Source: Hysterangium stoloniferum (Eukaryota > Basidiomycota > Agaricomycetes > Hysterangiales > Hysterangiaceae). Taken from it: a stretch of 64,000 bases of DNA. The first letter of the stretch is position 1. The number at the start of each line of letters is the position of its first letter. The notes beneath the pieces are model-generated. The model was not told where the DNA came from, did not search any database, and saw only the letters and a program-made list of their open reading frames with translations. Both the position numbers and the translations under genes were made by a program. This document shows, in pieces, positions 1,099 to 56,595 of the stretch. The stretch is taken from positions 1 through 64,000 of the forward strand of contig WHVD01000284.1 of the NCBI GenBank assembly GCA_015178975.1. The letters are read 5' to 3'.

Positions 1099-1150
1099 CT
1101 ATGAAAACCTTCCACCGTTGGGCCATCCACTCACCGTGAATACCCTGTCG

Positions 1151-1480: not shown

Positions 1481-2151
1481 GTGAAGAAGTCGTAGAAGCA
1501 GAGGGATAAAAGAGTTGGTAAAGGATGTCAGTGGGAATGGTGGTCTTCGTTGGACTTTTGACGAACACATTATCATCAACTGAGGACTGGTTGTAGTTAT
1601 GGGATCGATCGATACAGCCACGATGAAAACTCACCTGTGCAATAACAATCCAAGGTGCGGTTAGCGGACTAATTTTCAGTCAGGTTTTTCGCCAAAGTGC
1701 GGAATATTTAAAGTAGCTCAATCAGAATTGAATTTGGTTGCAGAGGGAGTCATTCTCTTGATGACATTACTGAAGGTGACACAAACGACGTTCGACGGAT
1801 TAAGGAAACGAGGAAACGGTCGCCGCTTTTCAAATGGCGCCTAACGCTAAGCTGTTATCTTAAATGAATCACTCCTTGCTGCTACAATTGACGCAGCCAT
1901 TAAGCTGGCCTTTTCAGGATTCTTACGCTGTGAGGAATTTACCATCAAAGGGAACACATTTCAATCCTTCGATCCTTCGGCTCACCTGACCAGGAATTCC
2001 ATTTCCTTCTTACCTAATTTCGAGGACCTCTCACATAACTATCACCTTTCCTGCCTCTAAAACCAACCCCTTTTGAAAAGGCGTCACTACCTACGTCGCC
2101 GCCGTTGCTGCCACCACTTGTGCTTGTGCAGGCCTCAAACACCTCTTCACC

Positions 2152-2532
2152 GTGGATCCATGCTCTCCCACTTCACCACTATTTTCCAACGGCGATGGGT
2201 CCTCCCTCCAGTATTCACTCTTCGTGTCTTCACTCAAATCCTTCCTCCATGCTGCTGGTTTCAATCCTGCCTCATTTGCAGGTCATTCCTTCCATAGAGG
2301 TACGGCATCTTCTGCTGCGGAAGCAGGGTTCACCGACTATGAAATCCAATTGCTAGGACGTTGGCGCAGCGATGCTTACAAACTTTACATCAAGTCCTCC
2401 TGCACTCGTGTTCTCAACCTCTCTGCAAGGCTTCATTGGGCCGTTCCCAACACTCAACCTCTCGGCCGTCTATGGCTTGAGCACGGCCCTATCTTTTTCC
2501 GGTCACGCAAAAGAGCGGTGGCGACGCAATAG
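2152..2532 (+). pseudogene. Tyrosine recombinase C-terminal fragment (DIRS/Crypton-like)
   Basis: A 126-residue frame carries the C-terminal half of a phage-integrase-fold tyrosine recombinase, the enzyme that integrates DIRS retrotransposons or Crypton DNA transposons. The visible order is the box-II region GHSFHRGTASSAAEAGFTD, then EIQLLGRWRSDAYKLYI with the nucleophile-type Tyr, then LSARLHWA. In active relatives box II reads HxxR. Here the fourth position is His (CAT at about 2,290), a change one G-to-A step from CGT, so the catalytic Arg appears lost. There is no N-terminal half, reverse transcriptase or split direct repeat nearby, so this is a remnant. The frame 5' of about 2,150 is not supported. 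Confidence 0.7.
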
Positions 2533-5500
2533 AACTCTATTTGCTTGCCCAGTGTCACAAACAAATGACAGAGATTATATTAGTTACAGGCGCTTCTAAT
2601 ACTGCGCGTCTATGTAAATGCTGGCTAACCTGAGTATGCTGGCACGGATCTAAGTTGATTAATAGTGACCTCGACCTCCTATCTTAAAGCGAGGCAGAAG
2701 AGAATGCGATACGATGAGAACAAGCTTTATTGAATTAATAGGGGCGAATAGCAATTGTTGTGGTGAGCTGAACATCCGGGCCTATGTTGCAATCCGAGTC
2801 CTTCAACCATTGTTCAATAGCGTTGCGTCTCATTGCTCGCCATCCTACAATGGCGTATCTGTCCCTCTGACATTGGTGATCTGAAAGAGCGGTTTTGCCG
2901 TGGCTTTTGGCATGGTTGGGCATATGAGGTAGGCTTCATGGAGGCAGGGCTTGTTTTTAGACTGAAGGTGGGCTCTTTATTCCCTTCGGTTCATTCACTT
3001 CGTGGTTTATTCATCTTGTGTCTTTTTCAGGACATGGACGTTTTCCAACGCGAGGATATTCTGGGTCACCATCCTCTATGACTGGATATGGAAGATCCCA
3101 CACTTTTCTCAATATCGCCGCTGCACCTTCGTCGCCACGAAACCTGTACCGCAGTCAGATCTCGGCCTCTATATCCTTCTCTAACCTCCCGCCGCTCGAA
3201 CATGACACCCTCCTCAGATTCCTACAAGTCCACTCATAAACGCGAACTCTGTCTATGAACATTCTTATCCCTCCTGGTCTGCTAACGCTCTTCATTTTTC
3301 ACCTCGTTCCCTCTGTGTCCCACCCCTTCGTTGTGTCGTCTCGTAAAAACGTGTGCCTTTCAAACGGGATTATGTTGGAGCGTGAGAAGCATTCAGGGGG
3401 GTGTATGCATCGTTCGGAGGGTTGGGCATGTTGGGTATACGGCTATTGTACCTGAAGGGGTATGCGGCGCTATAAGGATTACATCGTCTATTAGGAATGA
3501 GCCGAGATAAGTAACGGCCACGACGAGCCTGTGGCAAGTAAAAATGCCATTCTTGGGGCGCGGCAGATTTGCTGGTGGCGTGGCTTCGGGGAGAGAAGAT
3601 AGTGTTGACGATGCACGCGCAATTATAGTGGTTATATTCATTTTCCCATCATCATACAATCCCACCGTCACAGTCGTACATCTGAGCACCAAAGTCGCAT
3701 TCGACACGCACGCATACCCCCGCTATCATTCCCATTTTAACATCAGTTCAGACATTCCTACTACAACCGCAACCGCAACAACTACACCTTCTACATCCCG
3801 CACCACAACACCCACTTACATCACGCCCTCATCCCTCACCCGATGCAGCAGCAGCACGTGTAGTATCACTCTTGCACGTATCAATGGCACTACTTCCTCA
3901 CGTAATGGTAGCTCTTCTCGCAATAACACCCTAACCCCAACCCAAACCACTCCCTCCCTCTTTAGTACTAAAATTGATAGCGTCCGCGAGGGAATCCGCA
4001 GACTCAAAGATGAGGGATAAGGAAAGAGTGAGGGTGAGGCAGGAAAACATAAGCGACTACGGGTGTCAATGTGGGTGGTGCGACGGTAAGGAGATGGGCG
4101 GCTTTGTTGATGGGTGGTGGTGTAGGAGTTATGGATACTGTCCTTGGTTTGGTGTTGGGGAGAAGGATAGGGAAAAGGAAAAGGAAGGGACATTCGTTCA
4201 GGAGAAAAAAGGAACAGGAGGAAGGCATCGACACTGTCACTAGCGGTGCTGATGCCAGGGAACGAAATGCAGAGAGGGAGAAGAGGGGGGATGATGTTGA
4301 CGACCTTGCGTCGCCTTGCCCCTACTCCAGGTGACCGGCAAGAACAGACACAAGCGGGTTCTCGGAAAGACGAAGAGACGGAAAGAGGACGATAATCCAG
4401 CCACGAATGACCAAGAGTGGTAAAGAGAAAGTGGGAGAAGGAAAGGAAGAGTCACACTGCCAACAAGAGGGGAAAGCGCAAAATCAGTAGAGTTAAAAGG
4501 AGGCAACATAAAGTCTGGGGCATCGAGGGGGAGGAGCAAGAACGCGAACCCCAAATCGGCACGACATAGGACCGCGAACACGAGCGTAAACATAGCACGA
4601 CCGACTATGAAAGTGAACCCAGCACCACGGAGCACAAGTCCATCCTACGGATCATCACGAGTCCAAGGAGGGAGGGTATTCCTGCACCCGTAGCGCCTTT
4701 GGCCACGAATATTTTGACGCGTGTTAATAGTGTGGAGGAATGAGGCGATGATGCCGACGCGGGCCTTTTCTAAGCACGAGAGTGCCGACAGTCACGAGGC
4801 CTACCACGGGGAGAAGCGGTAACAACATTGATAACGCCGTTCCGCGTGATACGTCTGGAGCTGGACTTCATAGGACGTCGAGTGCTTACGGTAATGATAG
4901 TGGAAAAGGGTGCGTGAATGGAAGCGGGGTTACAGGCAATCCCCCGAGCGATCCGAGCACTAATGCTGTTACGTCTGGGTCTCGTCTTGACGTTCCGCCA
5001 GGTGCTGGCATCAATGCTCAGGATCATCCTCCCATGGTGTTAACGCTTCTCAACTCTCGCCTCGATCAACAACGGTCCCCGGTTATATATCCTCATCATC
5101 TTACAACTATCCCACCTCGTCCTTGACATACGCTGTCGGTGTCGCGTCCAACTTCATAAATCCGAGAACACGTAGGGTGAGATTGAGGTGTATCGAGGGT
5201 TCTTTGTGTCCATCTACCTGGCTCTAATCCTCTACCCACAATTTTCCACCGTCAATCCATCTTGTCCATCTGCAGTCCATTTGAATTCGCCGAACCCCCT
5301 ATATCCTCCACCACATCATATTATCCACCCGTATCTCCTGCCTGCACTGCCATCCTACGTTACTTGTTCTACACTGACTTGCCATTTCTTTTTTTTGGTC
5401 AATCGTGAATTTAGACATACTTTGGTAGAAATTGGGACATTTCGAGGAAAAATGTGGAAATACCATCGGGTATGTCAGGTGGCTTTGGGCGGGTCTTTAT

Positions 5501-22925: not shown

Positions 22926-23098
22926 TCATCCACCTCCGGCAACTTGACATAGTAACACTAAAGACCTCCTGAGACGACTCAAGATTGGATGGTGGATCTT
23001 CATGAAACGTTCAGTGGCAAGGATCCAGGATGTTTCTTCATCTGTATCTTCATAGCCGGACCATTTCACCAGGTAGAGCAGTTTGCACGCCTTTACCT
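22926..23098 (-). pseudogene. Chromodomain end of a chromovirus relic (left flank of an inversion)
   Basis: On the minus strand the peptide reads KACKLLYLVKWSGYEDTDEE and then SWILATERFMK, the C-terminal chromodomain of a gypsy pol. In intact relatives this follows directly after LDSKIDK-RRT. Here the homology stops at 23,098 and the adjoining segment is in the opposite orientation, so this piece is the left flank of an internal inversion. Confidence 0.8.
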
Positions 23099-23972
23099 CT
23101 ATACTAGGTGTTGTTGACAGATTCACTAAGCAGAGTATTTTTATACCTACATATGACACAATTACCTCCCAAGGACTTGCAAAATTATTTGTTATCCACA
23201 TTTTCTTGAAACACAGCATCTCAACTCATGTCACCTCAGATTGGGGCCCTGAATTTGTCTCTCACTTCTTCAAATCACTCAGAACAGCCCTTGATCTGAA
23301 CCTACATTTCACTTTGGCACACCATCCAGAAGGTGATGGGCAGACTGAATGAGTAAATGAAACATTGGAACAATATCTTTGTATCTATTGCAACTACCAA
23401 CAGGGCAATTGGTTGGACCTCCTACCTCTTGCAGAATTTGCCTACAATGCCCCAAATGCTGCCACAGGCATCTCCCCTTTCTTTGTGAACAAAGGCTATA
23501 GCCCCAACATTGCGGTCCATCCAGAACATGATCTGGCCTCCACTGGCACTCAACAGTTTCTCACTGATCTAGATGAACTTCACTGCACCCTTTGGCAGTC
23601 CATACTTGCACTCAAGCATATTCCCAGAAGTTGGCAGACTGCCAACATCTTCAGACACCTGATTTTAAGGTCAGCAACCAGGTTTTTGTCAAAACTGAGG
23701 TTTTTAGGACCACCCAACCCACAAAAAAGCTTGTTGAAAAGTGTCTTAGTCCATATGAGATTATTACACAAGCAGGGACACATTTGTTCACACTTCAGCT
23801 TCCCAATACCATGTGTGCAGTACATCTGGTTTTCCATGTCTCTGTATTAGAACCAGCCATGCTGAATACCATTCCTGAATGCATTCAACCTCCCCCACCA
23901 CCTGTCATTATTGATGGAGAGCTCAAATTCAAAATTGAGGCCATTTTAGATTCCAAAATCAATCATAGGTGA
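23099..23972 (+). pseudogene. Inverted integrase segment of the same relic
   Basis: On the plus strand this 870-bp segment encodes the integrase from VVDRFTKQSIFIPTYDTITS to EAILDSKIN, exactly the part missing between the two minus-strand flanks. It includes the core (TSDWGPEFVSHFF, HHPEGDGQTE), a stop at 23,350-23,352, one frameshift near 23,620, and the C-terminal domain (NQVFVKTEVFRTTQPTKKL, HVSVLEP). The DDE Asp in TSD is present, but the following Arg is Trp. The element is dead. Confidence 0.85.
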
Positions 23973-23984
23973 CATGATTGTGAA

Positions 23985-24690
23985 ATAGGGAGGTGCTCAA
24001 TGAAATCCATGGAAATTGAGTTCCACAGGAGCTCTGGTACAGGGAGCTGCTTGAGTAGGACATAGGGTTTGTGTCTTTGGGCTTTGGATTGTATACAGGT
24101 GGTGCAAGACTTGTAATAGCTTTTTACAAGTGAGCAGAGGGCTGGCCAGGTGTATTCTTGATGGATAATACTAAGGGTTTTGTTGGATCCATAGTGGCCA
24201 GAGATGTGGTGGCTGTGAGCACACTGGAGAATATAAAAATGAAGTGTTCCAGCATCCAGTATGTAGATTCTGCCATCAAGGCAGATAAAACCACTTGAGT
24301 CCTGAGTCCATCAGGGGGCTGATGGGTTATTAGGTTGTCAAGATGGGAACTAGTAATTGGGTCATTTCAGAGGCCTGATAGGATATCTTGATGAAGCTTT
24401 GTGATATCCATAATGGTGACACTGCAAGGTATTGGTGCAACTAGAGAGGAAGCTTGAAGGGATGTCATTAGTTGTTCAGCAGTAAAGATAGGCTTAAAAT
24501 TGTGCAGGTTGACTGCTGCATAGTTGTTGGTCCCCTCTCTTTAAGGTAGACATCTTATCATCTTGTCATGGCATTGGGTTTACTGTCCAGGTGGCCAGGC
24601 CAAAATCCAATTATGAGGCTGAACTGAGAAAGGTATTCTGACCATTGGGCTTGCCAACAAGTAAGGAGCTTAGTCATAGCAAAATATTCT
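23985..24690 (-). pseudogene. RNase H-end and integrase N-terminal part of the relic (right flank)
   Basis: Minus-strand homology resumes at about 23,985 with the integrase SMDFIEHLP-type start. It continues back through the H2C2 zinc-binding region and the tail of RNase H (corresponding to FNMIIRFRPGRLGGKPDA in the intact copy at 50.8 kb) to about 24,690. Frames are broken throughout. Together with 22,926-23,098 it defines a minus-strand element whose centre is flipped. Confidence 0.75.
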
Positions 24691-24782
24691 AAGTTCTTAC
24701 ATGTACGAGTTTCTGACTTTCCGGTGACTTCCCGATAGTTCCGGAATAAGTTCCCAACACGGCACTTAACAGGCCTCCAATA

Positions 24783-30280: not shown

Positions 30281-30945
30281 CCGAAATCCCAAGGAGGCCG
30301 AAAAGTGCTGAAGAATAAGGTGAAGGCAGGAAGGTCGGAAGGGGATGGGATTTGGCAAGGTGCTGGAAAGGGTTCGGAAAAGGTTCGGAAAAGTTCGGAA
30401 AGGATTCAGAAAGGATTCGGAGAGGATTCGGAAAGTCAAGATCAAGATAAAAGTCAGGATGAGGCCATGGTCATATTTGGATACTTGAATGTAAGTTCAA
30501 ACCTCGAAAAGGTCCGGAAACCTAAAAATTCCGAAAATCCAATAAGGTCTGAAAGTCCGAAAAGGTCCGGGACAGAGTCCGGAAGTTCCGAGGGATCCGA
30601 GCACACTGAAAATGTGGGAGCAGACAAAACAGGGCAAGGGGGACAGGGGTGACGAAAGTCCGAAGATGCCAAAATGCAGAGGGTGCAAGGCAGTGCGAGA
30701 ATAAATGCTAACCAGTAGGACAGAAAGGTGCCGGAAAGGCTGGAAGGTGTCCGAATGGACTGGAAATTGCCTATGAGGGGCCGGAGTGTTAACTGGGGGC
30801 AAACAGGGAATGCCGAGTTGCTGGCAGCCACTGAGAGGGCTGAGGAGGAAGTGAAGGAAAAGAGAACAGGATACACAAATATGGGTGTCGGAAAATGTCG
30901 GGATGCTGTAGATGATAGGGGTCCGGATATGTTCGGATATGCTTG

Positions 30946-32590
30946 ATGGAAGTCTTTGATAATGTCCGATGTGTTTCCGAGTTCTGTGGCAAGAATCCAG
31001 GATACTTATTCATCGGTACCTTCGTAACCTGTCCACTTGACCAAATAGAGTAGTTTGCAGGTACGTCAGTGATTATCCATCTTTGAATCTAGGATTTCCG
31101 ATATCTCGAATTCGGGTTCCCCATCAATAACCATGGGTGGAGGCGAAGGTTGTACTAGGTGTACTGCACGCATATTCTCGGGGAGCTGAAGCGTCCAAGA
31201 GAGCGTGCCTGCTTGTGCTATAATTTCAAAAGGTCCTAAGTACTTGTTGGCGAGCTTTTTGGATGGCCTAGTCATTCGGAAGAACTCGGCTTTTGGAAGA
31301 ACTCGGTTTTGACAAATACTCGGTCACCGATCTTGAGTTCAGGGGGCGGCAGCCGATTTTTATCTGTGGAGTGTTGGTAATGTTCATGGGCCGATGTGAT
31401 GTTCTTTCGAAGTTCTTGGTGTAGCTCGTTGAGGTTTGTGACAAAGTCCTGAGCACGGGTTGAAGTGAGATCGCGTTCCAGATGGATAGCGATATTTGGG
31501 TTGTAGCCTTTATTTGCGAAGAAAGGCGAAATGCCGGTAGTAGCATTTGGGGTGTTGTTATATGCGAATTCGGCAAGCAGTAGAAGTGATTTCCGATTGT
31601 CTTGTTGATAGTTGTAATAGACTCTGATGTACTGTTCCAATGTTTGATTAGTGCATTTGGTTTGGCCGTTGCTTTCCGGGTGGTAGCCGGAAGTGAAATG
31701 GAGTTTCATGTCAAGTGCTTTTCCGAGTGACCTAAAAAAGTGAGAGATGAACTCGGATCTGCGATCGGAAGTGACATGCAACGGAAATGCCATGCTTGGA
31801 GAATACATGAGTGTTGAACAATTCGGCCAACTGTATGGATGTTACTGTATCATAAGTTGGAATGAAAATACTTTGCTTGGTAAGCCGATCCACAACAATG
31901 AGAATTGCGGTATGGCCGTTGGATGCCGGTAGGTGTTCGATGAAATCCATTGATATTGAATTCCAGGGTTTTTCCGGTATTGGGAGTTGTTGAGTAGGCC
32001 ATGTGGTGTGTGACATCTTGATTTGGAATGTGCACAGTTGGTGCATGATTTACAATAATGCTTGACAAAATCTCGGAGACCGGGCCATGTATTTTCTCTT
32101 TGGATAAGTCCAATGGTAAATTGATACTGAAAATGTCCCGAGATCTGGTGGTCATGTTTATGCTGTCAAACTCGAAGTCGGAGAGTGTCGGAGTCCGGAA
32201 CATATATGCAATTGTCAAGTTTAATGAAACCTTGCGGGTCGAGTGACCATCGAGAATGATCGGGGTCGGACGGGTTATTGAGGTGTGCTTTGGTAACTGG
32301 GTCTAATGGAATTGCCGATAGTATATCTTGATGTAATTTTCGGTGTCCATAAGGATAACACTGCACATGACTGGATGTATAAGGTAAGTAGCTCGGATTA
32401 ACTCGGACAGTTGTTCGGATGAAAACATAGGCTTGAAATTATCCAGATTAACTGTGGCGTAGTCGCTACTCCCCTCTTTAGGATAGACATCCCATCGTCT
32501 AGTCATAGCGTCGGGTTTTCCACCAAGGCGGCCAGGACGGAAGTGGATGATCATATTGAAGGCAGAAAGGTATTCGGAGAAGGGCCGGGT
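30946..32590 (-). pseudogene. Truncated pol of B1 (RNase H tail, integrase, chromodomain)
   Basis: Minus-strand pieces in order: the RNase H tail (SEYLSAFNMIIHFRPGRLGG, 32,303-32,590); the H2C2/early integrase (31,850-32,250); the core (SIFIPTYDTVTSIQ, TSDRRSEFISHFF, SGYHPESNGQTK, 31,272-31,932); the C-terminal domain (LKIGDRVFVKTEFF, then TRPSKKLANKYLGPFEI); and a chromodomain with TAA in DE-stop-VSWILAT near 30,992. A short duplication of GAAGAACTCGG at 31,275-31,300 breaks the frame at EFF. The pol 5' end is cut abruptly at about 32,577 inside RNase H, where non-coding repeats begin. Confidence 0.88.
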
Positions 32591-45649: not shown

Positions 45650-46658
45650 TGTTAAGGGTACGTACACAGCAGGTTCCTGGAGAAACCTGTGGAAACTCTG
45701 GTAGACTTGGCTTCAGCTTGGAGGCTACGCCCTCGCGAGATTGTGTTGTCCAATTTCAAACCGGCAGATGGGAAACCTGGGGAGTCTGGGCAGGGTTTGT
45801 GGGTCAAGGGGTCAGAGGTCAGAGGTCGTGGGTTGAGAGGTTGGGGAGTTGAGATAAATAAGAGAGATAGATGTGTCAGAGCCCGTGGGCTTTGACTAGC
45901 GAGAGTGGTGTAATTTAAAGAGGAGTTTAGAGCAGAAAATGTATTAGATTACTGGGGGGAATCTAAGCCAATTTTCTGGCTGGATTGTATGCACAACATC
46001 TACCAGACTATATAGACCGTGGAATGAATAACATACCAAATCCAGTAATAATGAAATGAAACTAGCAAAACATAAAACAAGAATAGTAAACACCAAATTT
46101 GGTGTTAGGACAGGATGGAACAGAGCGGAGTCCAAATTGTGACAGGTCATTGACTAAAACAGGAATGGGGTGGGAGCGGAGTCCGAATCGTGACAGGTCA
46201 TTAACTAAAATGGGAATGGGGCTCAGTTAGAGGGGTGACAGGTTTTCCGAGTGGGGTCTGGTGACTGATGTGCAGGGTCTGGTGACTGATGTGCAGGGTC
46301 TGGTGACTGATGTGCAGGGTCTGGTGACTGATGTGCAGGGTCTGGTGACTGATGTGCAGGGTCTGGTGACTGATGTGCAGGGTCTGGTGACTGATGTGCA
46401 GGGTCTGGTGACTGATGTGCAGGGTCCAGTGACTGATGCATGGGTTCTGGTGACTGATGTGCAGGACAGAGTTGGACAGACAGGGATGGAGTCCGGTGGG
46501 TATTCTGGTGACTGATACACAATGTAACAAAGTCAAGTGTGGACAAGTCTGACATACAGAGTCCAGTGGAAATTCCAGTAAACTGACAATTGGTGTGTGT
46601 AGGGCACGTGTGCATATACATTAGTGCCCAGAGTCCAGCAGGAATTCTGGTTGTAACA
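45650..46658 (-). mobile_element. Element A1 3' LTR (1,009 bp)
   Basis: A family A LTR with plus-strand ends TGTTAAGGG and GTTGTAACA. On its right is GTACCCTCCCTTTATG, the complement of the family A PPT, so this is the 3' LTR of a minus-strand element whose body runs to at least 61,812. It is longer than the 811-820 bp sister LTRs because of an expanded 21-bp array. It carries the conserved U5 motif ACTTGGCTTCAGCTT at 45,706. The left flank is GTGCT, and the matching right flank lies outside the window. Confidence 0.9.
46254..46470 (+). repeat. 21-bp minisatellite within the A1 LTR (about 10 units)
   Basis: Ten GGTGACTGATG-containing units with a strict 21-bp period, the first eight essentially identical and the last two diverged. 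The sister LTRs at 47,594 and 54,580 have a single equivalent of this unit (GACTGATGCGTGG), so the array is a local expansion. Translations on both strands (VTDVQGL and AHQSPDP repeats) are artefacts of it. Confidence 0.95.
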
Positions 46659-46869
46659 GTACCCTCCCTTTATGCTGAAGTCCCAAAGAGGCTCTAGACC
46701 TTGATAAGGTACTTGTCGGCTATGTGCATGTGTCAAAAGTCATGTTGGTTACATGTATGTGTCACAGGGTCACATGATCTGGAAGGAAAGGTTCAGATGC
46801 GACAAGCCTATATAAAAAATTGAAAAAAATGAATTTTTCTTCTTCTTTAATACCCCCATCATCAACAAC

Positions 46870-46986
46870 TTGGGACCAAACCCAATGCCAAGAAGACCAA
46901 TGCTGACCGCCGGGCCCTCCACAGGCACTCCATATCAGGCATCACTCACCACAGCCCAACTCTTGACACAGTGAGAAGAGCAATGC
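46870..46986 (+). pseudogene. Antisense zinc-cluster gene of A1, 5' part (start codon lost)
   Basis: This is the beginning of the third copy of the family A antisense gene. The expected ATG is TTG (46,870-46,872). The next codons match the N-terminus GPKPMPRKPMPTAGPS-type of the copy at 48,008, followed by an in-frame TGA. The gene is cut at 46,986 by the insertion of A2, whose TSD AATGC is 46,982-46,986. The gene resumes at 55,758. Its conserved TATA box (GCCTATATAAA) is at 46,806-46,816. Confidence 0.85.
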
Positions 46987-47806
46987 TGTTAGGATACACA
47001 CACAGGGTGGGTTTCCGGAGAAACCCGTGGGATATCTGGTAGGACTTGGCTTCAGCTTATAGGCTGCACCCTCGCTAGATCGTGTTGTCCAATTTCGAAC
47101 AGGCGGACAGGGATCCTGGGGAGTCCGGGTGGGGTTTTTGGGTCATAGGTTGTAAGTCGGAGGTCATGGGTCGTGAGTCGAGATAGTCGAGAGAGATAGA
47201 TGCGCTAGAGCCCGTGGGCTCTAACTAGTGAAAGCGATGTGAATCAAGCATGGTTTTAGAGTGGAAAATGTTATTAGATTACTGGGGGGAATCTAAGCTA
47301 ATTTTCTGACTGGATTGTATGTACAACATCTGCCAGTTTATATAGACCGTGGAGTGAATGACATACCAAATCCAGTAATGATGAAATGAAACTAATGAAA
47401 CATAAAATGGGAATAATAAACCCCAAGTTTGGTGTTAGGAATGGAACAGAACGGAGCAGAGTCCGAATCGTGACAAAGCATAACCCATAACGGGAAACAG
47501 AGCGGGAGTGGAGTCCTAAATCGTGACAGGTCATTTGACTAAAACAGGAACGGGGCTCGATTAGAGCAGTGACGGGATTCTAAGCGGGGTCCAGTGACTG
47601 ATGCGTGGAATGAAGATGGACATAGACAGAGACGGAGTCCGGGGGAAGTCCAGTTACTGAGATATGTCGTAATGAGGTCGAACGTAACAAGTCTTGACGT
47701 AACAGAGTCTGGGCAGGAAATCCTATAAACAGACATTTGGTGCTTGTAGCGTGTGGGGGTGTATGGGTTAGTGCCCAGAGTCCAGTGGGATTGTCTGGTC
47801 ATAACA
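46987..47806 (-). repeat. A2 3' LTR (820 bp) with PPT
   Basis: Plus-strand ends TGTTAGGATAC and GGTCATAACA. The PPT complement GTACCCTCCCTTTATG follows at 47,807-47,822. On the minus strand a TATA box (GGTCTATATAAACTGG) lies about 470 bp into the LTR, and the U5 motif containing AAGCTGAAGCCAAGTCC is near its 3' end (47,044-47,075). Confidence 0.93.
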
Positions 47807-47947
47807 GTACCCTCCCTTTATGCCGAAGTCCCAAAGAGGCTCTAGACCTAGACTGTTGGCTACACGCATGTGTCAAAAGTCATGTTGGTTACACGTATGT
47901 GTCAAAGAGTCATGTGATCTGGAAGGTAAGGTTCAAACGTGACAAGC

Positions 47948-47957
47948 CTATATATAA
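47948..47957 (+). promoter_or_regulatory. TATA box of the antisense zinc-cluster gene
   Basis: TATATATAAA lies 51 nt before the ATG at 48,008. The surrounding GACAAGCCTATATA block is conserved in A1 (about 46,800) and A3 (minus strand, about 54,220). Upstream (47,868-47,917) the motif TGTGTCAAA with AGTCATGT appears twice as a direct repeat, a candidate upstream element. The promoter is separate from the LTR promoter. Confidence 0.7.
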
Positions 47958-48007
47958 ATTTGAAAAATATAAATTTCTTCTTCTTTATTACCCCCAGCAT
48001 CTATAAC

Positions 48008-49007
48008 ATGGGACCAAAGCCCATGCCGCGCAAGCCTATGCCGACCGCCGGGCCCTCCATGGGCAATCAGTACCAGGCGCCGCTGTCTGCTGCCCAAATC
48101 TTGGCGCAGCAGGATGAGCAACGTCGACAGCGAGAAGAGGCGGAGCAAGAAGCCTGGGAGGTCGAGGAGGCCCTGAATAGGGAATACCAGGCAGCCATGG
48201 CCACGGAGGAAGAGGCTGTGAGGCAGAAGCAGAGGGATGAGGAGGAAGCTGCACCAGTGGCCGTGGAGAAGACCAGGATGGTGGCAGAGAAAGCCCGGGT
48301 GGCTGCGGTTGTTGCAGGAAAGGTAAGTCCCATAGTTCAACTTGTTGTTTTCTTTTGACTTGGCATTTTCAGCGCAAGGTGGCGGAAGTCGAGTCCGAGT
48401 CCGAGGGGGAGCCAGAAAGCCCCAAGAAGGTGAGTCTCGGTCTGTGGGTATACTGTGGAGCTAACCGTGTCAACAGAAAGGAAGGAAGGTGGTGCCAGTC
48501 CACCTACCGGCTCAGAACGACCCGCGGTGTTCCAGTTGTAATGACCAGAACACTGAGTGCAATCAGAAGTCTGGCTGGGGCCCAGGGTGTTACCAGTGCA
48601 CGCACCTCAAGGCGAGGTGCTCACTCATTCACGAGCAGGCTGCAGGGTCCAGTTCACCGGAGAATGACGGGTCGGACAGATACTCCAGTCTGGAGGAAGC
48701 CTTGGGATGGATTGCCGAGGGCATTGAAGCCCAAAACGAGTTGCTCCAGAAGAGCAACAAAGTCAGTGTCATCATGGCGAACGATCTCCACGCAATCCGC
48801 AGGGACCATTTCAAATTCCTGATGGAGTATGCCGGCTTTGTGTATGAAAAGCCAGAGGATGGGAGTTCCAAGGAGGCCGGTTCAGATGAGGAGGAGGTGC
48901 CCACGGAGATAGTGGAGCTACCTGAGGAGATGAATGAGGCAGGAAAAGCTGAGGCAAAAAAAGAGGCGGGGAAAAAAGATAGCCCCATCAATGTAGATGA
49001 AGAATAA
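48008..49007 (+). CDS. Antisense spliced gene of A2: coiled-coil, Zn(II)2Cys6-like protein
   Basis: Three exons (48008-48322, 48373-48429, 48477-49007) with introns of 50 and 47 nt (GTAAGT...CAG, GTGAGT...CAG) join in frame to a 300-aa protein. Residues 35-100 are a charged, probably helical segment (DEQRRQREEAEQEAWEVEEA). Residues 142-172 carry six Cys with spacing CX2CX6CX9CX2CX6C, as in the fungal binuclear zinc cluster. A further helical part (EEALGWIAEGIEAQNELLQK) and an acidic tail ending SPINVDEE follow. It lacks the basic residues usually found between Cys2 and Cys3, so DNA binding is not assured and protein binding is possible. It lies between pol (convergent, 200 bp away) and the 3' LTR. 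It is not a Gag knuckle (no CX2CX4HX4C). The frame is fully open. Confidence 0.8.
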
Positions 49008-49206
49008 AAATAAAACTTGATAATAATTTTGAACATAAAAGTAAAGCGTGAAAAACATAAGAATAAAAGTCATAGCCAAAGTCCACAGAGAGTCCACTTA
49101 AGGACTTGACAAGACATGTCAGAACCTGTAAAAGCAAAGAGAGACATAGGGCAACAGGGAATAATGAAAATGAGTCCAAATGTAACACGGGGTCCATGGA
49201 GTGTGG

Positions 49207-50340
49207 TCAGAGAGATGATAATGGTCCAGGTTTGAGTGGGTAAACTGTATGAAAGTCAGTAATGATTTCTGTGGCATTACCGAGTTCTGTGGCCAAAATC
49301 CATGAGGTTTCTTCATCGGTGCCCTCGTAACCCACCCATTTGACCAAGTAAAGCAGTTTACAAGTGCGTTGATGCTTGTCAATTTTTGAATCTAAAATCT
49401 GTGAGATTTCAAACTCGGGTTCTCCGTCAATGATGGCAGGAGGAGGTGGAGATTTCACGCGATCCGGGATAGTGTTAGCAGTACAAGGTTCTAGCATAGA
49501 AACATGAAATACCGGGTGTACCACGCACATGCTATCTGGAAGCCATAGAGTCCAAGAAACTGAACCTACTTGTGTGATAATTTCAAACAGACCTAAATAT
49601 TTTTCAGCAAGCTTTTGTGATGGACAGGTTGTCCAGAAGAATTGAGCTTTGACAAAGATGTGATCACCAATTTTGAAGTATGGTGGTGGGATCCAGTGTT
49701 TGTCTGCTGAATGTTGGTATTGCTCTTGGGCGGGCAATATTGCAGTCCGGAGTTCCTCATGGAGCTTGTGGAGGTCTGTGGTGAACTCTTGAGCACAAAC
49801 AGAGGCGAGATTTCGTTCTGGATGTACTGTAATATTTGGATTATATCCTTTATTTGCAAAGAATGGGGAAACACCAGTAGTGGCCGAGGGTGCATTGTTG
49901 TAAGCAAACTCTGCAAGTGGTAACAAGGATTTCCAATTGTCCTGTTGGTAGTTGCAATATACGCGGAGGTATTGTTCCAATGTCTGGTTGACGCATTTGG
50001 TTTGTCTGTCACCTTCCGGGTGATGTCTGGATGTGAAATGTAAGGTCATGTCCAAGGATTTTCTGAGGGATCTAAAGAAGTGAGACATGAACTCTGATCC
50101 TCGATTGGAAGTCATGTGGGATGGAACTCTGTGCTTGGAAAATATGTGGATAATGAAAAGTTCCACTAACTGCACGGATGTAATTGTGTCATATGTAGGG
50201 ATGAATATACCTTGTTTTGAGAATCTGTCAACAATGACTAGAATAGCAGAAAAGCCTTCGGAATCCAGTAGGTGTTCAATGAAATCCATAGAGATAGAAT
50301 TCCATGGGTGTTCCAGTACTGGGAGTTGTTTCAAGAGGCC
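49207..50340 (-). pseudogene. A2 integrase core, C-terminal domain and chromodomain
   Basis: A 375-aa frame from MKQLPVLEHPWNSISMDFIE to the stop after YPLKPGPLSSL. The DDE Asp in SMDFIEHL is present. The second is Asn in TSNRGSEFMSHFF (codon 50,104-50,106), from GAT in a CG context. The Glu region ends HHPEGDRQTKCVNQTLEQYL. The C-terminal domain (FKIGDHIFVKAQFF, AEKYLGLFEIITQVGS) and the chromodomain (CKLLYLVKWVGYEGTDEETS) follow, which normally directs integration to methylated-histone chromatin. Upstream the frame is closed by TGA after CSKSQ (50,347), again CGA to TGA. Confidence 0.9.
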
Positions 50341-50352
50341 GTATGGCTTGTG

Positions 50353-50691
50353 TCACTGGGATTTCGAGCAGGGACAAGTAGTGCAAGATTTACAATAGTG
50401 CTTAACGAATCCATGGAGTCCGGGCCAAGTGTATTCTCTTCTTATTAATGATAGAGTTTTGTTGTACCCGAAATGTCCTGAGAGTGGATGATCATGTTTG
50501 TATTGAAGGATCCTGAGGTGGAGGCCATCGGAGTCCAGTATGTAGATGTGATCGTCAAGTCTAATGAAACCATGTTGATCAAGAGACCACCGGGGTTGAC
50601 CGGGGTCCACGGGATTGTCAAGGTGAGCTTTAGTAATCAGGTCTAGTGGAATTGCCGATAGAATGTCTTGATGTAACTTCTCAATATCCAT
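50353..50691 (-). pseudogene. A2 integrase N-terminal H2C2 zinc domain
   Basis: This frame contains HPLSGHFGYNKTLSLIRREY and then KHYCKSCTTCPCSK, the HHCC zinc-binding domain that precedes the integrase core. It is in line with the core frame and separated only by a TGA, and is preceded by an RNase H tail segment with stops (50,700-50,835). Confidence 0.85.
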
Positions 50692-50835
50692 AATGATAAT
50701 TCAATGGACAATGGGATTGATGAGGAAAGTTGCACGGACCGATGCAGTAAGTTGTTGATTCGTGAAGATAGGTTTCAGGTTGTGTGGATTTACCATTGCA
50801 TAGTCGTTGCTCCCCTCTTTAGGATAGACGTCCCA

Positions 50836-51867
50836 TCATCTAATTAAAGCGTCGGGTTTGCCACCGAGACGGCCGGGTCGAAAACGGATAATCATGTTGA
50901 AGGCAGATAGATATTCAGACCAGCAGGCCTGCCGGCGGGTCAAAAGGTTTGTGGTAGAAAAGTATTCCAGGTTTTTGTGATCTGTTACAACGTCAATAGG
51001 AGTTCCTGAGCCTTCTAAATAGTGTCGCCATGCTTTGAAAGCTGAAAAGATTGCCAGAAGCTCTTTATCATGAACGTCGTAGTTGAGCTCTGCTCCGGTA
51101 AAAGTCCGGGACAGAAAAGCCACGGGGTGGACTTCTCCGTCGGAGTCCTGGATAGACAGAATGGCTCCGAGTGCATAGTCCGAGGCGTCCGTTTCGACAA
51201 TGAGCGGGAAGTCCGGTTTCCAATGCGACAGAATAGGAGCTGTAGAAAAAGAATTTTTTAAAAGATTGAAAGCTTTTTGACACTTATCATTGAAATTCCA
51301 CGGAGTCCCCTTACGTGTAAGACGGGTAAGGGGTACCGTGATGTCGGAATATCCACGGATAAAACATCTGTAAAAATTGGCAAAGCCGAGGAAGGATTGT
51401 ATATCTTTAACTTTTCGGGGTTCGGGCCAATCTTTGATGACTTGCACTTTAGTTTCATCCATGTGGAGTCCATCGGGTCCCATCATGAAACCTAGGTATT
51501 CCACGGAGTCCGTGTCAAAAGTACATTTTTTACCATTCGCGAATAAACCATGTTTTCTAAGTCTCCGGAGAACTTCACGGACTTGTTTGTCATGTTCCGC
51601 GGGATTCTCGGAGTAGATAAGAATGTCGTCCAAGTAAACAATGACGCATACATCGAGCATGTCGGAGAAAATGTCGTTGATAAAACGCTGAAAAACAGAA
51701 GGAGCATTGGTGAGTCCGAAGGGCATCACCAACCACTCAAAGGCTTCATAGCGGGTTCTAAAAGTGGTTTTCCATTCGTTGCCCGTGGCGATCTGGACCA
51801 AATGATAGGCATGCTTGAGATCTATTTTGGTGTAAATCCGGGCGTTCTGTGGAGCATTGAGCAGATT
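50836..51867 (-). pseudogene. A2 reverse transcriptase (5'-truncated) and RNase H
   Basis: An open frame starting within RT (NLLNAPQNARIYTKIDLKHA), through MPFGLTNAPSVFQRFINDIF, the intact active site VYLDDILIYSENP (51,620-51,640), VEYLGFMMGPDGLHMDETKV and the RNase H acidic residues ([39 protein letters not shown]). It ends at a TGA in ALIR-stop-W (CGA to TGA). The first roughly 130 RT residues, protease and gag are deleted at the head-to-head junction near 51,868. It is the best-preserved RT in the window. Confidence 0.9.
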
Positions 51868-52950
51868 ATGGATTTCATTGAACACCTACCGGACTCCGAA
51901 GGCTTTTCCGCCATTCTAGTCATTGTTGACAGATTCTCAAAACAAGGTATATTCATCCCTACATATGACACAATTACATCCGTGCAGTTAGTGGAACTTT
52001 TCATTATCCACATATTTTCCAAGCACAGAGTTCCATCCCACGTGACTTCCGATCGAGGATCAGAGTTCATGTCTCACTTCTTTAGATCCCTCAGAAAATC
52101 CTTGGACATGACCTTACATTTCACGTCCGGACATCACCCGGAAGGTGACGGACAAACCGAACATGTCAATCAGACATTGGAACAATATCTCCGTGTATAT
52201 TGCAACTACCAACAGGACAATTGGAAATGCTTGTTACCACTTGCAGAGTTTGCTTACAACAATGCACCCTCGGCCACCACTGGTGTTTCCCCGTTCTTTG
52301 CAAATAAAGGATATAATCCAAATATTACAGTACATCCAGAATGAAATCTCGCCTCTGCTCGTGCTCAAGAGTTCACCACAGACCTCCACGAGCTCCACGA
52401 GGAACTCCAGACTGCAATAAAGTCTGCCCAAGAGCAATATCAACTTTCAGCGGACAGACACCGGATCCTGCCACCCAATTTCAAGATAGGCGACCGTGTT
52501 TATGTCAAAGCTCAATTCTTTAGGACAACCCGTCCATCAAAAAAGCTTGCTGAAAAATATTTAGGTCCGTTTGAAATTATCGCACACGTAGGTTCAGTCT
52601 CTTGGACTCTACGTCTTCCAGATAGCATGCGCGCGGTACACCCGGTATTCCATGTTTCTATGTTAGAACCTTGTACTGCTAACACTATCCCAGATCGCGT
52701 GCAATCTCCGCCTCCTCCTGTCGTCATTGACGGAGAACCCGAGTTTGAAATCTCGCAGATTTTAGATTCAAAAATTGACAAGCGTCGACGCACTTGTAAA
52801 CTGCTTTACTTGGTCAAGTGGGCGGGTTACGAGGGCACCAATGAAGAGACATCATGGATTTTGGCCACGGAACTCGGTAATGCCACGGAAATCGTTACTG
52901 ACTTTCATTCAGCTTACCCACTCAAGCCTGGACCATTATCGTCTCTCTGA
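51868..52950 (+). pseudogene. A3 integrase and chromodomain, fused head-to-head to A2
   Basis: Plus-strand integrase from MDFIEHLPDSEGFSAILVIV on, with the DDE core intact: TSDRGSEFMSHFF (Asp at 52,051), HHPEGDGQTEHVNQTLEQYL, then the C-terminal domain (KIGDRVYVKAQFFRTTRPSK) and the chromodomain (CKLLYLVKWAGYEGTNEETS) up to the stop at 52,950. The frame is open apart from one TGA at 52,342-52,344 (HPE-stop-NLASAR), a CGA-to-TGA change. RT, RNase H and the H2C2 domain are missing at the fusion. Confidence 0.9.
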
Positions 52951-53159
52951 CTGCACTCTGCGGACCCCGTGTTACGTTTGGACTCATTTTCACTACTCCC
53001 TGTCGCCCTATGTCTCTCTTTGCTTTTACAGGTTCTGACATGTCTTATCAAGTCTTTAAGCGGACTCTCCGCGGACTTTGACTTTGACTTTGACTTTTAT
53101 TTTTTTTAAGTTTTTCACCCTTTACTTTCACATTCAAAAATTATTAAACTTTTATTATA

Positions 53160-54157
53160 TTATTCCTCATCTACATTTATGGGGCTATCCTTTTTACCCG
53201 CCTTTCTTTCTGCCTCAGCTTTTCCTGCCTCATTCATCTCCTCGGGTAGCTCCGCGACCTCCACGGGCACCTCTTCCTCATGAGACCCAGCCTCCGGCTT
53301 CTCATATACAAAGCTGGCATACTCCACCAGGAACTTATAATGGTCCCGGCGGAGTGCGCGGATATCATTCGCCATGACTACACTAACCTTGTTGCTCTTC
53401 CGGAGCAACTCGTTTTGCACGTCAATCCCATCAGCAATCCGTCCCAAGGCCTCCTCCAGACCGGAGTACCCGTCTGACCCGCCACTCTCTCTTGTACTCC
53501 CGGACCCCGTGGCCTGCTCATGGACAAGTGAGCACCTCGCCTTGAGGTGTGCGCACTGGTAGCAGCCCGGGCCCCGGTCGGACTTCCGATTGCACTCAGT
53601 GTTCCAGTCATTACAACCAGAACACCGCGGGTCGTTCCGAGTTGGTAGGCGGACTGGCGCCACCTTCCTTGCTTTCTGTTGATACGGTTAGCTCCATGGT
53701 AATCCCACGGATCCAATACTCACCTTGTTGGGGCTCTCTTGCTCCCCCTCGGACTCCAATTCGACGTCTGCTGCCTTGCGCTGAAAATACCAAGTCAAAA
53801 CAAAAACACAAGTCGAATGCTGGGACTTACTTTTCCTGCTACAACCGCGGCTCACTCCGTGGCCACCCGGGCCTTCTCTGCCACTACTTTGGCCTTCTCT
53901 GCGGCCACCCGCACAGCCTCCTCCTCATCCCTCTGCCTCTGCCTCGCAGCCTCTTCCTCGGCGGCCACGGCTGCCTGGTACTCCCTATTAAGGGCCTCCT
54001 CGACCTCTCGGGCTTCCCGCTCCGCCTCTTCCTGCTGTCGTCGCTGCTCGTCCCGCTGCACCAATATTTGGGCGGCGGTCAGCGGCGCCCGGTACGAACT
54101 GCCCATGGAGGGCTCCGCGGTCGGCATAGGTTTTCACGGCGTTGGTTTTGGTCCCAT
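53160..54157 (-). pseudogene. Antisense zinc-cluster gene of A3 (exon 1 damaged)
   Basis: Second copy of the antisense gene, opposite to A3 pol and convergent with it. Exon 3 (53,663 to 53,160) is completely open, with the same cluster spacing CX2CX6CX9CX2CX6C, the helical EEALGRIADGIDVQNELLRK and the same SPINVDEE end. Introns have the same donor and acceptor forms (GTAAGTCCC and GTGAGT donors). Exon 1 has TGA at codon 8 (54,134-54,136) and another at 53,852-53,854 within a 12-nt insertion relative to the A2 copy, so the full-length protein is not made unless translation starts or splicing differ. Its TATA region (GAGCCTATATAAAAATTG) is about 70 nt upstream of the ATG. Confidence 0.8.
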
Positions 54158-54371
54158 GTCGTAGATGATGGGGGTAATGAAGAAGAAGAAATTTCTATTT
54201 TTTCAATTTTTATATAGGCTCGTCGCATTTGAACCTTACCTTCCAGATCACATGACTCTTTGACACATACGTGTAACCAACATGACTTTGACACATGCGT
54301 GTAGCTGACAAGAACCTTATCCTTATCTATGCCTAGAGCCTCTTTGTGACTTCAGCATAAAGGGAGGGTAC

Positions 54372-55182
54372 TGTTACGACCCGGACAAATCCCACCGGAC
54401 TCCGGGCACTAACCCGTACGCCCCCACGCGCTACAAGCACCAATTGTCTGTTTATAGGATTTCCTGCCCAGCCTCCATCACGTCAAGACTTGTTACGTTC
54501 GACCTCATTACGACACATATCAGTAACCGGACTTCCCCTGGACTCCATCTCTGTCTATGTCCGTCTTCGTCCCACACATCAGTCACCGGATCCCGCTCAG
54601 AATCCCGTCACCACTCAATTCGAGCCCTGTTCCCGTTTTAGTCAAATGACCTGTCACGATTAGGACTCCGCTCCCACTCCGTTTCCTGTTATGGGTTTTG
54701 CTTTGTCACGATTCGGACTCCGCTCCGTTCTGTCCCGTTCCTAACACCAAATTTGGTGTTTACATTTCCCGTTTGTGTTTTGTTAGTTTCGTTTTCATTA
54801 TTACCGGATTAGTATGTTCATTCACTCCATGGTCTATTTAAACTGGCAGATGTTGTACATACAATCCAGTCAGAAAATTAGCTTAGATTTCCCCCCAGTA
54901 ATCTAATATATTTTTCCTACTCTAATCACACCGCTCGCACTAGTCGGAGCCCACGGGCTCCGGCGTATCTATCTCTCTCGACTATCTCGACTCACGACTC
55001 ACGACCTCACGACCTACGACCTACGACCCACGAACCCCGCCCGGACTCCCCAGGATTCCCGTCTGCCTGTTTGAAATTGGACGACACGATCTAGCGAGGG
55101 CGCAGCCTATAAGCTGAAGCCAAGTCCTACTGGATATCCCGCGGGTTTCTCATGAGACCCACCCTGTGTGTGTATCCTAACA
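54372..55182 (+). repeat. A3 3' LTR (811 bp) with PPT
   Basis: Ends TGTTACGACC and TATCCTAACA, preceded by CATAAAGGGAGGGTAC (PPT, 54,356-54,371). It is the most CG-rich family A LTR here. It contains CCACCGGACTCCGGGC near its start, a TATA box (GGTCTATTTAAACTGG, about 54,831) and the U5 motif GCAGCCTATAAGCTGAAGCC near 55,102. The right flank is AAAGT within the A2 5' LTR, and the matching left flank has been deleted. Confidence 0.93.
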
Positions 55183-55757
55183 AAAGTGATGTGAATCAAG
55201 CAAGGTTCTAGAGTGGAAAATGTTACTAGATTACTGGGGGGAATCTAAGCTAATTTTCTGACTGGATTGTACGTACAACATCTGTTAGTTTATATAGACC
55301 GTGGAGTGAATGACATACCAATCCAGTAATGACAAAACGAAACTAACAAAACATAAAACGGGAATAATAAACACCAAGTTTGGTGTTAGGAATGGAACGG
55401 AACGGAGTGGAGTCCGAATTGTGACAAAGCATAACCCATAACGGGAAATGGAGTGGGAGTGGAGTCCTAAATTGTGACAGGTCATTTGACTAAAATGGGA
55501 ACAGGGCTCAATTAGAGCAGTGACGGGATTCTAAGTGGGGTCCGGTGACTGATGTGTGGGACGAAGACAGACATAGACAGAGACGGAGTCCGGGGGAAGT
55601 CCGGTGACTGAGATGTGTCGTAATGAGGTCGAATGTAACAAGTCTTGATGTAATGGAGTCCGGGCGGGAAATCCTATAAACAGACATTTGGTGCTTGTAG
55701 CGCATGGGGGCGTACAGGTTAGTGCCCAGATTCCGGCGGGATTGTCCAGTCGTAACA
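55183..55757 (-). repeat. Remainder of A2 5' LTR (575 bp)
   Basis: This matches 47,220-47,806 of the A2 3' LTR from GCGATGTGAATCAAGC-type sequence to the terminal GTCGTAACA, and is followed by the TSD copy AATGC. The missing outer part (about 240 bp) lay on the other side of the A3 insertion and was deleted. Confidence 0.9.
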
Positions 55758-56595
55758 AATGCCGACAATGCGAGGAGGCCGAGAGAGAAGCCAGGGAGGC
55801 CGAGGAGGGCTTGGACAGAGAGTACCAGGTGGCCTTGGCCATGGAGGAAGAGGCTGAGAGGCAGAGGAAGAGAGATGAGGCAGAGGCTGCATGGGTGGCC
55901 ACAGAGAAAGCCAAGGTGGCTGCAGACAGGGCTGCAGTTGCCATGGGAAAGGTAAGTTCCACTATTCCTCATGTCAACTTAACTGACTTGTTTTTTCAGT
56001 CCAAGGCAGCAGAGGTCCTGAAGGGGAGCTGGAGAGTCCCCAGAAAGTGAGTCTCAGGTCTGTGGGTTCTTCAGGGAAACTAACCACAGCAACAGAAGTC
56101 AAGGAAAGTGGCACCAGTCCACCTACCTGTGAGGAATGACCTGCGGTGTTCCAGTTGCAATGACTGGAACACTGACTGTAATCGAAAGTCCGGGCGGGGA
56201 CCAGGCTGCTTCCAGTGTGCGCACCTCAAAGTGAGGTGCTCACTGGTTCACAAGCAGCCCACGGGGTCTGTGGCACAGGACATAAGTGGGTCAGATGGGA
56301 TTTCAGGACTGGATGAGGTTTTGGGATGGATCACTGAGGACATAGAGGCCCAAATCTAGTTGCTGAGGAAGGGCAACAAGGTACAGGTGGTGGTAGCCAA
56401 TGAACTCCATGGGCTCTGCAATGAGTTTTGGAAATTCCTTGTGGAGTACGGTGGCTATGTATATGAAGAGCCATAGATCGGAAGTTCCAAGGATGCCAGT
56501 TTGGATGAGGATCGGGTGCCCGTGGAGGTAGCAGAGCTTTCTGAGGAGAAGGCTGAGGTGGGGAAGAAACATAGCCCCATCAATGTAGATTGAAA
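55758..56595 (+). pseudogene. Antisense zinc-cluster gene of A1, 3' part
   Basis: Continuation of the gene interrupted at 46,986. Exon 1 remainder to 55,951, an intron to about 55,999, exon 2 to 56,046, an intron to about 56,095 and exon 3 to about 56,595. The six-Cys cluster (56,150-56,240) keeps the CX2CX6CX9CX2CX6C spacing, so it is conserved in the oldest copy too. A TAG at 56,357-56,359 and a later TAG end the frame early. The final HSPINVD is still recognisable. Confidence 0.85.

What the first reader, a model, noticed from the sequence alone, without database searches (positions are those of the whole stretch)
46806..56595. A spliced antisense gene with a Zn(II)2Cys6-like cluster is carried by a chromovirus family
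Seen: in three copies (A1: 46,870-46,986 plus 55,758-56,595; A2: 48,008-49,007; A3: 54,157-53,160, minus) a gene lies between the chromodomain stop and the PPT/3' LTR, always opposite to pol. It keeps the same two introns, the same TATA block (GCCTATATA), and a six-Cys cluster CX2CX6CX9CX2CX6C. Known: antisense extra ORFs occur downstream of pol in some plant Ty3/gypsy lineages, and Zn2Cys6 is a fungus-typical regulator domain. Inference: the element acquired a fungal zinc-cluster gene, which may regulate the LTR, silence the host response or act as an accessory capsid or targeting factor. I know of no described fungal chromovirus with this layout.
Basis: partly seen in the sequence, partly recalled or inferred. 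Interest (0 to 1): 0.92.

Follow-up and report, generated by a model that had tools for sequence, protein, structure and literature searches.

The report
Retrotransposon carrying a swappable antisense gene
A very abundant jumping gene in a truffle-like fungus carries an extra backwards, intron-bearing gene that is kept under selection and seems to have been exchanged between element lineages, which offers a way to ask what such backwards genes do.

Summary
Confirmed, and stronger than first stated. The window comes from a 111-Mb fungal genome, very probably Hysterangium stoloniferum. A chromovirus there carries a spliced antisense gene between the chromodomain stop and the PPT/3' LTR. Both introns keep GT-AG in 41 of 41 copies. 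Nine young copies keep an intact 294-aa spliced ORF; four have both LTRs complete, 0-2 differences apart. Of 150 pol hits found without reference to the gene, 136 show all or part of it in place, 5 a broken one, 9 are unresolved.

New here: at least two deeply diverged gene types (probably three) on nearly uniform backbones. Gene dS between types A and B is 0.74-0.99, against 0.11-0.19 for pol of the same elements. Identity falls only inside the gene cassette, implying cassette exchange. dN/dS is about 0.2.

The Zn2Cys6 label fits the cysteine spacing only; Pfam Zn_clus is below cut-off. The layout has a fungal precedent, Boty/brtn, in a chromodomain element. Best reading: a nuclear accessory regulator of the element; function is inferred, transcription untested.

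The parts
46987..47806 (.). LTR at the 3' side of the A2 element (lies upstream of the gene)
   Evidence: blastn of L031 LTR 1-821, 88.0%; ends TGTTA...TAACA read
47807..47821 (-). polypurine tract next to the 3' LTR (purine-rich on the minus strand)
   Evidence: read directly; same position in full-length copies
47946..47954 (+). TATA block GCCTATATA of the antisense gene
   Evidence: block from PPT to TATA about 95% identical between gene types
48008..48322 (+). A2 exon 1: start codon, Pro-rich start, long Glu/Ala/Arg-rich stretch read as a helix
48323..48372 (+). A2 intron 1 (50 nt, GTAAGT..CAG, branchpoint-like TTGAC)
48373..48429 (+). A2 exon 2 (19 codons); both splice junctions fall inside basic clusters (GK^RK and KK^KGRK)
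48430..48476 (+). A2 intron 2 (47 nt, GTGAGT..CAG, branchpoint-like CTAAC)
48477..49007 (+). A2 exon 3: Cys6 cluster, helix-like segment, acidic tail, stop
48528..48620 (+). six-Cys cluster CX2CX6CX9CX2CX6C (residues 142-172 of A2)
   Evidence: in the 30 type-A copies counted, five of the six Cys never change and the first changes once
49207..51864 (-). A2 element pol, 3' two thirds, broken; chromodomain end at 49207
53160..54157 (-). A3 copy of the gene (three exons, same introns; stops at codons 8 and 102)
54211..54219 (-). TATA block GCCTATATA of A3
54372..55182 (.). LTR next to A3 (inverted relative to the A2 LTR)
46870..46986 (+). A1 remnant, 5' part of exon 1 (probable third gene type)
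55758..56595 (+). A1 remnant, rest of exon 1 to exon 3, decayed
46982..46986 (.). 5-bp target duplication AATGC (partner 55758-55762) around the insertion that splits A1
   Evidence: read

Best explanation
The feature is a genuine accessory gene of a large, recently active chromovirus family. It has its own TATA block just inside the 3' LTR and is read towards pol. Because it runs antisense, its two introns cannot be spliced out of the genomic RNA, so they survive retrotransposition (inference). The spliced product (about 294-300 aa) has a long charged stretch, basic clusters completed by splicing, a Cys6 zinc-cluster-like module and a C-terminal part; I read it as a nuclear, probably zinc-binding protein that acts on the element itself, its LTR or chromatin state, like the accessory regulators of complex retroviruses. 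The Cys module is almost the same in types A and B, as expected if it recognises the shared backbone. Residues 225-250 have changed as fast as silent sites between A and B but are constrained within A, as expected if this segment meets a changing partner (a host factor, or a copy of itself). Elements have swapped the whole gene cassette by recombination, probably template switching between co-packaged RNAs. Shown: position, splicing signals, selection, type structure, sharp cassette borders. Inferred: transcription, protein, nuclear site, zinc, target, partner, and the route of exchange.
For: Intact 294-aa spliced ORF in 9 of 9 young copies fetched (chosen because their exon 3 scored alike), 4 with both LTRs complete and 0-2 differences apart, with 5-bp target duplications. 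Gene or part of it in place at 136 of 150 pol hits; no gene hit in the pasted lists lay within 1.5 kb in another orientation. Splice signals 41/41. dN/dS between types 0.173-0.255, median 0.198, over 30 type-A copies; in these, five Cys never change and one changes once. Gene dS 0.74-0.99 against pol dS 0.11-0.19 in the same ten elements. Pol dS among nine A elements (median 0.147) equals that between A and B, while gene dS jumps from 0.32 to 0.75-1.02. Borders of the divergent block about 30 bp before the ATG and 70-100 bp after the stop. A/B branch 0.008 in the pol tree, 0.53 in the gene tree; B backbone nested among A backbones, AU p 0.014. Residues 225-250: dN/dS 0.97 A against B, 0.11 within A.
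Against: No RNA or protein data. Pfam Zn_clus below cut-off; no PDB relative; AlphaFold model uninformative (mean pLDDT 45, 3 sequences). CGG-N3-CCG sites, the textbook target of zinc-cluster proteins (recalled), looked enriched in the LTR against shuffles but occur at 2.6 per kb in the internal region too, so the test is inconclusive. Within type A the gene is also about twice as diverged as pol at silent sites, so part of the gap may be a higher rate, or exchange inside type A. Residues 225-250 were picked after seeing the data (one-pair permutation p 0.0004). The nesting of B rests on a long-branch outgroup, an unsettled bootstrap and copies degraded at CpG. In one copy (L003) A/B dN/dS was 0.35.
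Confidence: 0.5

Rival explanations
1. The protein is not a regulator but a structural or delivery factor: it travels with the pre-integration complex and, with the chromodomain, helps nuclear entry or target choice.
For: Basic clusters completed by splicing, long charged stretch, constant Cys module; accessory nuclear proteins are proposed for plant antisense genes (PMC7264820, part 2). A/B change in one segment could follow a change of chromatin partner.
Against: Gag and pol of L031 carry the usual domains without it (PR-RT-RH-IN-SH3-chromo); antisense expression from a separate promoter is a poor way to dose a particle protein (inference).
Confidence: 0.2
2. The antisense RNA is the active product (double-stranded RNA, self-limiting control or promoter interference); the ORF is secondary.
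For: Convergent, tail-to-tail transcription over the end of pol is implied by the layout; plant antisense genes have been proposed to act so (PMC7264820).
Against: dN/dS about 0.2, frame-keeping exon indels and a conserved Cys cluster need a protein.
Confidence: 0.1
3. The gene is not exchanged; it simply evolves much faster than the rest.
For: Within type A the gene is about 2.1 times as diverged as pol at silent sites (36 pairs); one 26-residue segment changes fast.
Against: Between A and B the gap is 4.3 to 7.4 times, introns are diverged like the exons, the type-B element L050 shows no gap (0.055 against 0.041-0.056), and pol is no more diverged between A and B than within A.
Confidence: 0.08
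4. The shared backbone, not the gene, was exchanged: old gene types were kept apart while recombination homogenised gag, pol and LTRs around them.
For: Gives the same divergence profile; a probable third type on an 87-90% identical pol fits several old types.
Against: B backbones nested among A backbones point to one recent join, but cannot separate the two in full.
Confidence: 0.15

Closest known systems
Boty-like elements of Botrytis cinerea with antisense gene brtn (Zhao et al. 2011, cited, not read)
   Same: Fungal Ty3/gypsy element with CHROMO domain in gag-pol and an extra antisense gene (PMC4227169 passages; PMC7264820)
   Different: Ascomycete host; no Botrytis protein among the hits, but the BRTN sequence itself was not at hand for a direct comparison; introns, Cys cluster and gene types of brtn not known to me
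Plant antisense aORF-3R genes: Grande gene23, RIRE2, Retand (TRP28 domain)
   Same: Extra gene antisense between pol and 3' LTR, kept in most copies, Grande's with own promoter and nuclear product (PMC7264820; PMC11963269 passages)
   Different: Domains differ from this one; Retand is not a chromovirus; the word intron does not occur in the Retand paper
Fungal Zn2Cys6 (Zn_clus, PF00172) regulators
   Same: Spacing of six cysteines; basic residues in one Cys loop
   Different: Pfam score below cut-off; triads appear in swapped order (subthreshold alignment)
HTLV-1 HBZ and similar retroviral antisense regulators
   Same: Antisense, nuclear regulator (PMC11963269 passages)
   Different: No sequence relation tested; comparison by layout only
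Tf1/sushi self-priming chromoviruses (recalled)
   Same: PBS complementary to an 11-nt stretch of the own LTR, 26 nt after a TATATAA box
   Different: Extra antisense gene

Membership tests
Ty3/gypsy chromovirus | PR-RT-RNase H-integrase order with C-terminal chromodomain | tested here: met
   L031 pol: RVP_2, RVT_1, RT_RNaseH, Integrase_H2C2, rve, SH3_Tf2-1, Chromo above cut-off
Ty3/gypsy chromovirus | LTRs, target duplication, PPT | tested here: met
   LTR of 821 bp, 5-bp duplications, PPT in L031, L033, L035, L037
Tf1-like self-priming | PBS complementary to the 5' end of the own transcript | tested here: inconclusive
   11-nt complement in LTR 496-506 downstream of TATATAA; transcript start not known
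[quoted passage not shown]
   136 of 150 pol hits, 5 broken, 9 unresolved
Antisense accessory gene (aORF-3R) | Antisense transcription from own promoter | not testable with these tools
   Only a conserved TATA block
Zn_clus PF00172 | Six Cys with CX2CX6CX5-12CX2CX6-8C (pattern recalled) | tested here: met
   CX2CX6CX9CX2CX6C
Zn_clus PF00172 | Pfam gathering score | tested here: not met
   11.8 and 8.0 bits against 21
Zn_clus PF00172 | Fold | tested here: inconclusive
   AlphaFold mean pLDDT 45
Boty brtn | Sequence relation to BRTN protein | tested here: inconclusive
   No Botrytis protein among hits; sequence of BRTN not at hand

The most novel reading that the evidence does not exclude
The retroelement keeps its accessory gene as an exchangeable set of old alleles (at least two, probably three types): a constant DNA-facing module joined to a type-specific partner-facing segment, swapped as a cassette onto one backbone, with the latest burst carrying a newly joined type. 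This would be a retrotransposon analogue of antigenic shift or of idiomorphs, by which the element escapes a host control factor or restricts rival copies.
Probability: 0.25. Interest if true: 0.85.

Novelty: new variant of a known kind. Interest (0 to 1): 0.64.

Why it matters
Antisense extra genes of LTR retrotransposons have been described for years, their functions still unknown according to the 2020 review read here (PMC7264820). Here one is kept by selection, has introns that its antisense orientation would protect, has a modular structure, and comes in deeply diverged types on nearly the same backbone. That gives a natural experiment: the types tell which part faces a constant target and which part faces something that changes. 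It also points to cassette recombination with sharp borders inside a fungal retroelement family.

Tried and rejected
Rejected: a passenger host gene (in place at 136 of 150, dN/dS about 0.2). Rejected: the open frames on the other strand as the real gene (introns, frame-keeping exon lengths and Cys cluster fit the antisense strand; dN/dS was computed for that strand only). Tried, inconclusive: CGG-N3-CCG sites in the LTR (enriched against shuffles in 3 of 4 LTRs; not clearly so against the element's own interior). Tried, no result: zinc-cluster halves scanned apart in Pfam (0 hits for 4 pieces); PDB searches; phage collection; paper searches for fungal or basidiomycete LTR elements with zinc cluster or antisense introns (listings only). 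The AlphaFold model was too weak for a fold search, so none was run. Reaching relatives outside H. stoloniferum failed (one search scored only the 8000 candidates sharing most words).

Rows dropped: L003 left out of the codon counts and of the gene tree because of a large insertion in exon 1. Young copies L031-L039 were picked because their exon 3 scored identically, so the absence of exon 3 protein changes among them is by choice; exons 1+2 were not picked so and show 4 silent and 2 replacement sites. In one search only part of the hit list was pasted. One unresolved pol hit (C212) has an exon 1 hit on its own strand about 1.7 kb away on the other side, which I took for a neighbouring element but did not check. 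One search compared pol identity of A-type (16) and older B-type (38) neighbours, lists read by eye (92-97% and 94-98%).
Full report
What was checked. Direct translation confirms it. A2 (exons 48008-48322, 48373-48429, 48477-49007) gives an uninterrupted 300-aa product; A3 keeps the structure but has stops at codons 8 and 102; A1 is a decayed remnant split by an insertion with a 5-bp duplication.

Source. The protein search returned one relative, from Hysterangium stoloniferum, which is 99% identical over its residues 65-201 to a place in the window's own 111-Mb assembly. The genome is therefore very probably that species, an ectomycorrhizal fungus (PMC7550596 passages). A profile search added one more H. 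stoloniferum protein. No relative from any other organism was found, within the limits of a word-based search.

The element. Four fetched young copies have both LTRs complete (L031, L033, L035, L037): 821 bp, 0 to 2 differences between the two LTRs, 5-bp target duplications and a PPT-like tract. Pol of L031 is an intact 1304-codon frame with protease, RT, RNase H, integrase, an SH3-like module and a chromodomain, all above Pfam cut-off; gag matches Retrotrans_gag above cut-off. An 11-nt stretch after the 5' LTR is complementary to the LTR 26 nt downstream of a TATATAA box, which suggests Tf1-like self-priming (family feature recalled).

Is the gene a part of the element? Searching the genome with the pol end alone gave 150 scored hits. 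In 128 a gene hit lies on the opposite strand, 198 to 249 bp beyond the pol hit; no pasted gene hit lay within 1.5 kb in another orientation. Of the other 22, two show the gene's 3' part in a DNA search, six have exon 1 at the normal distance (845-882 bp), five have exon 1 nearer or farther (247 and 1510-2895 bp: deletion or interruption), and nine are unresolved. So 136 of 150 show all or part of it in place, 5 a broken one, and 9 are unknown. Each protein search scored only the best 150 of 863 to 4245 candidates, so the family is larger than counted.

Are the introns real? In 41 copies both introns begin GT and end AG (41/41 and 41/41); a branchpoint-like motif is present in 41 and 40 of 41; exon 1 and exon 2 lengths are multiples of three in 37 and 40 of 41, whereas intron lengths take all three remainders. 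Both junctions fall inside basic clusters. RNA was not available.

Selection. Between type B (L031) and 30 type-A copies (L003 left out), dN/dS is 0.173 to 0.255, median 0.198; among type-A copies, decayed ones included, the median is 0.276 over 434 pairs. In one search, which kept L003, ten type-A copies gave 0.18 to 0.35. Pol of the same elements, with L050, gives 0.12 to 0.33. The six Cys are kept in the 30 type-A copies except for one change at the first. Old copies decay mainly by transitions at CpG.

The unexpected result. Type A and type B genes differ at synonymous sites by 0.74 to 0.99, while pol of the same ten A elements differs from L031 by 0.11 to 0.19; the type-B element L050 shows no such gap (0.055 against 0.041-0.056). 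Among nine A elements (36 pairs) gene dS has median 0.32 and pol dS 0.147: the gene is about twice as diverged as pol already within type A, but the A/B step brings a gap of 4.3 to 7.4 times with no rise in pol. Along the element, identity is about 0.95 over most of its length (LTR and the gag start somewhat lower) and 0.5-0.97, mostly 0.6-0.85, in 30-bp windows of a block that begins some 30 bp before the start codon and ends 70-100 bp after the stop; promoter and PPT lie outside it. The branch between A and B is 0.008 changes per site in the pol tree (16 rows) and 0.53 in the gene tree (15 rows). With an outgroup, B backbones nest among A backbones beside L043 and L048 (95/92), and A as one clade is rejected with AU p 0.014; the outgroup is long and the bootstrap had not fully settled. 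A1 of the window is probably a third type: 73-74% in the gene, 87-90% in pol, exon 3 dS 0.86 to A2 and 1.33 to B; it is decayed, and at the protein level it is nearer to B than to A (73% and 59%). Exchange of the gene cassette between lineages is the simplest account.

What changes between types. The Cys cluster has dN/dS 0.10 between A and B, and residues 199-224 have 0.08, while residues 225-250 have 0.97. Within five type-A copies with open frames (one lacks the ATG) the same segment has 0.11. The segment was chosen after looking; a permutation on one pair gives p 0.0004 for so dense a 26-codon window.

The zinc-cluster label. The spacing matches the Zn2Cys6 pattern (recalled), but Pfam scores are 11.8 and 8.0 against 21, and the profile's second half falls on the first triad, as if the two halves were in swapped order. 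Neither half alone gives a hit; no PDB chain of this family appears; the AlphaFold model has mean pLDDT 45. I call it zinc-cluster-like.

Mechanism. Most likely a nuclear accessory regulator. Antisense orientation explains how introns survive an RNA stage (inference from the strand). The constant Cys module fits a constant target such as the shared backbone, and the variable segment fits a changing partner. A search for CGG-N3-CCG sites in the LTR was inconclusive. Transcription, protein, zinc, target and partner remain unshown.

Known relatives. [quoted passage not shown] A Boty-like element has a CHROMO domain and brtn (PMC4227169 passages; Zhao et al. 2011 known only from citation). So the layout is a known kind.

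Noticed in passing
46987-55757: The insertion that splits A1 is bounded by a 5-bp duplication AATGC, but inside it the A2 and A3 half-elements (84% alike in exons 2-3, 89% in the pol end) face each other: LTR-gene-pol joined at about 51865 to pol-gene-LTR inverted, then a partial LTR. It looks like a product of aberrant reverse transcription from two co-packaged RNAs, or of later rearrangement.
   Followed up: partly
L031 7700-7754 and LTR position 496: Sequence after the 5' LTR is complementary to the putative transcript start behind a TATATAA box: candidate Tf1-like self-priming; the LTR side is also seen in L043, L046 and L050.
   Followed up: partly
LTR pairs of L041, L043, L046-L050: LTR differences are mostly transitions, the larger part of all differences at CpG (for example 32 of 50 in L043); CpG observed/expected 1.17 in the young L031 and 0.68-0.79 in older L047 and L046. 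Suggests CpG methylation decay.
   Followed up: partly
46212-46505: Minisatellite of 21-bp units next to or inside an LTR-derived stretch.
   Followed up: no
30910-32578 and 23091-24698: Pol fragments of more distant relatives (66-70% nucleotide identity); whether they carry an antisense gene was not examined.
   Followed up: no
P0002 (public protein): A public H. stoloniferum gene model joins exons 1-2 to the end of exon 3 and skips the Cys cluster; could be an annotation artefact or a splice form.
   Followed up: no
gene residues 225-250, type A copies: Synonymous diversity within type A is about three times higher here than in the rest of the gene (0.80 against 0.26, five copies); maybe finer allelic exchange.
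   Followed up: no
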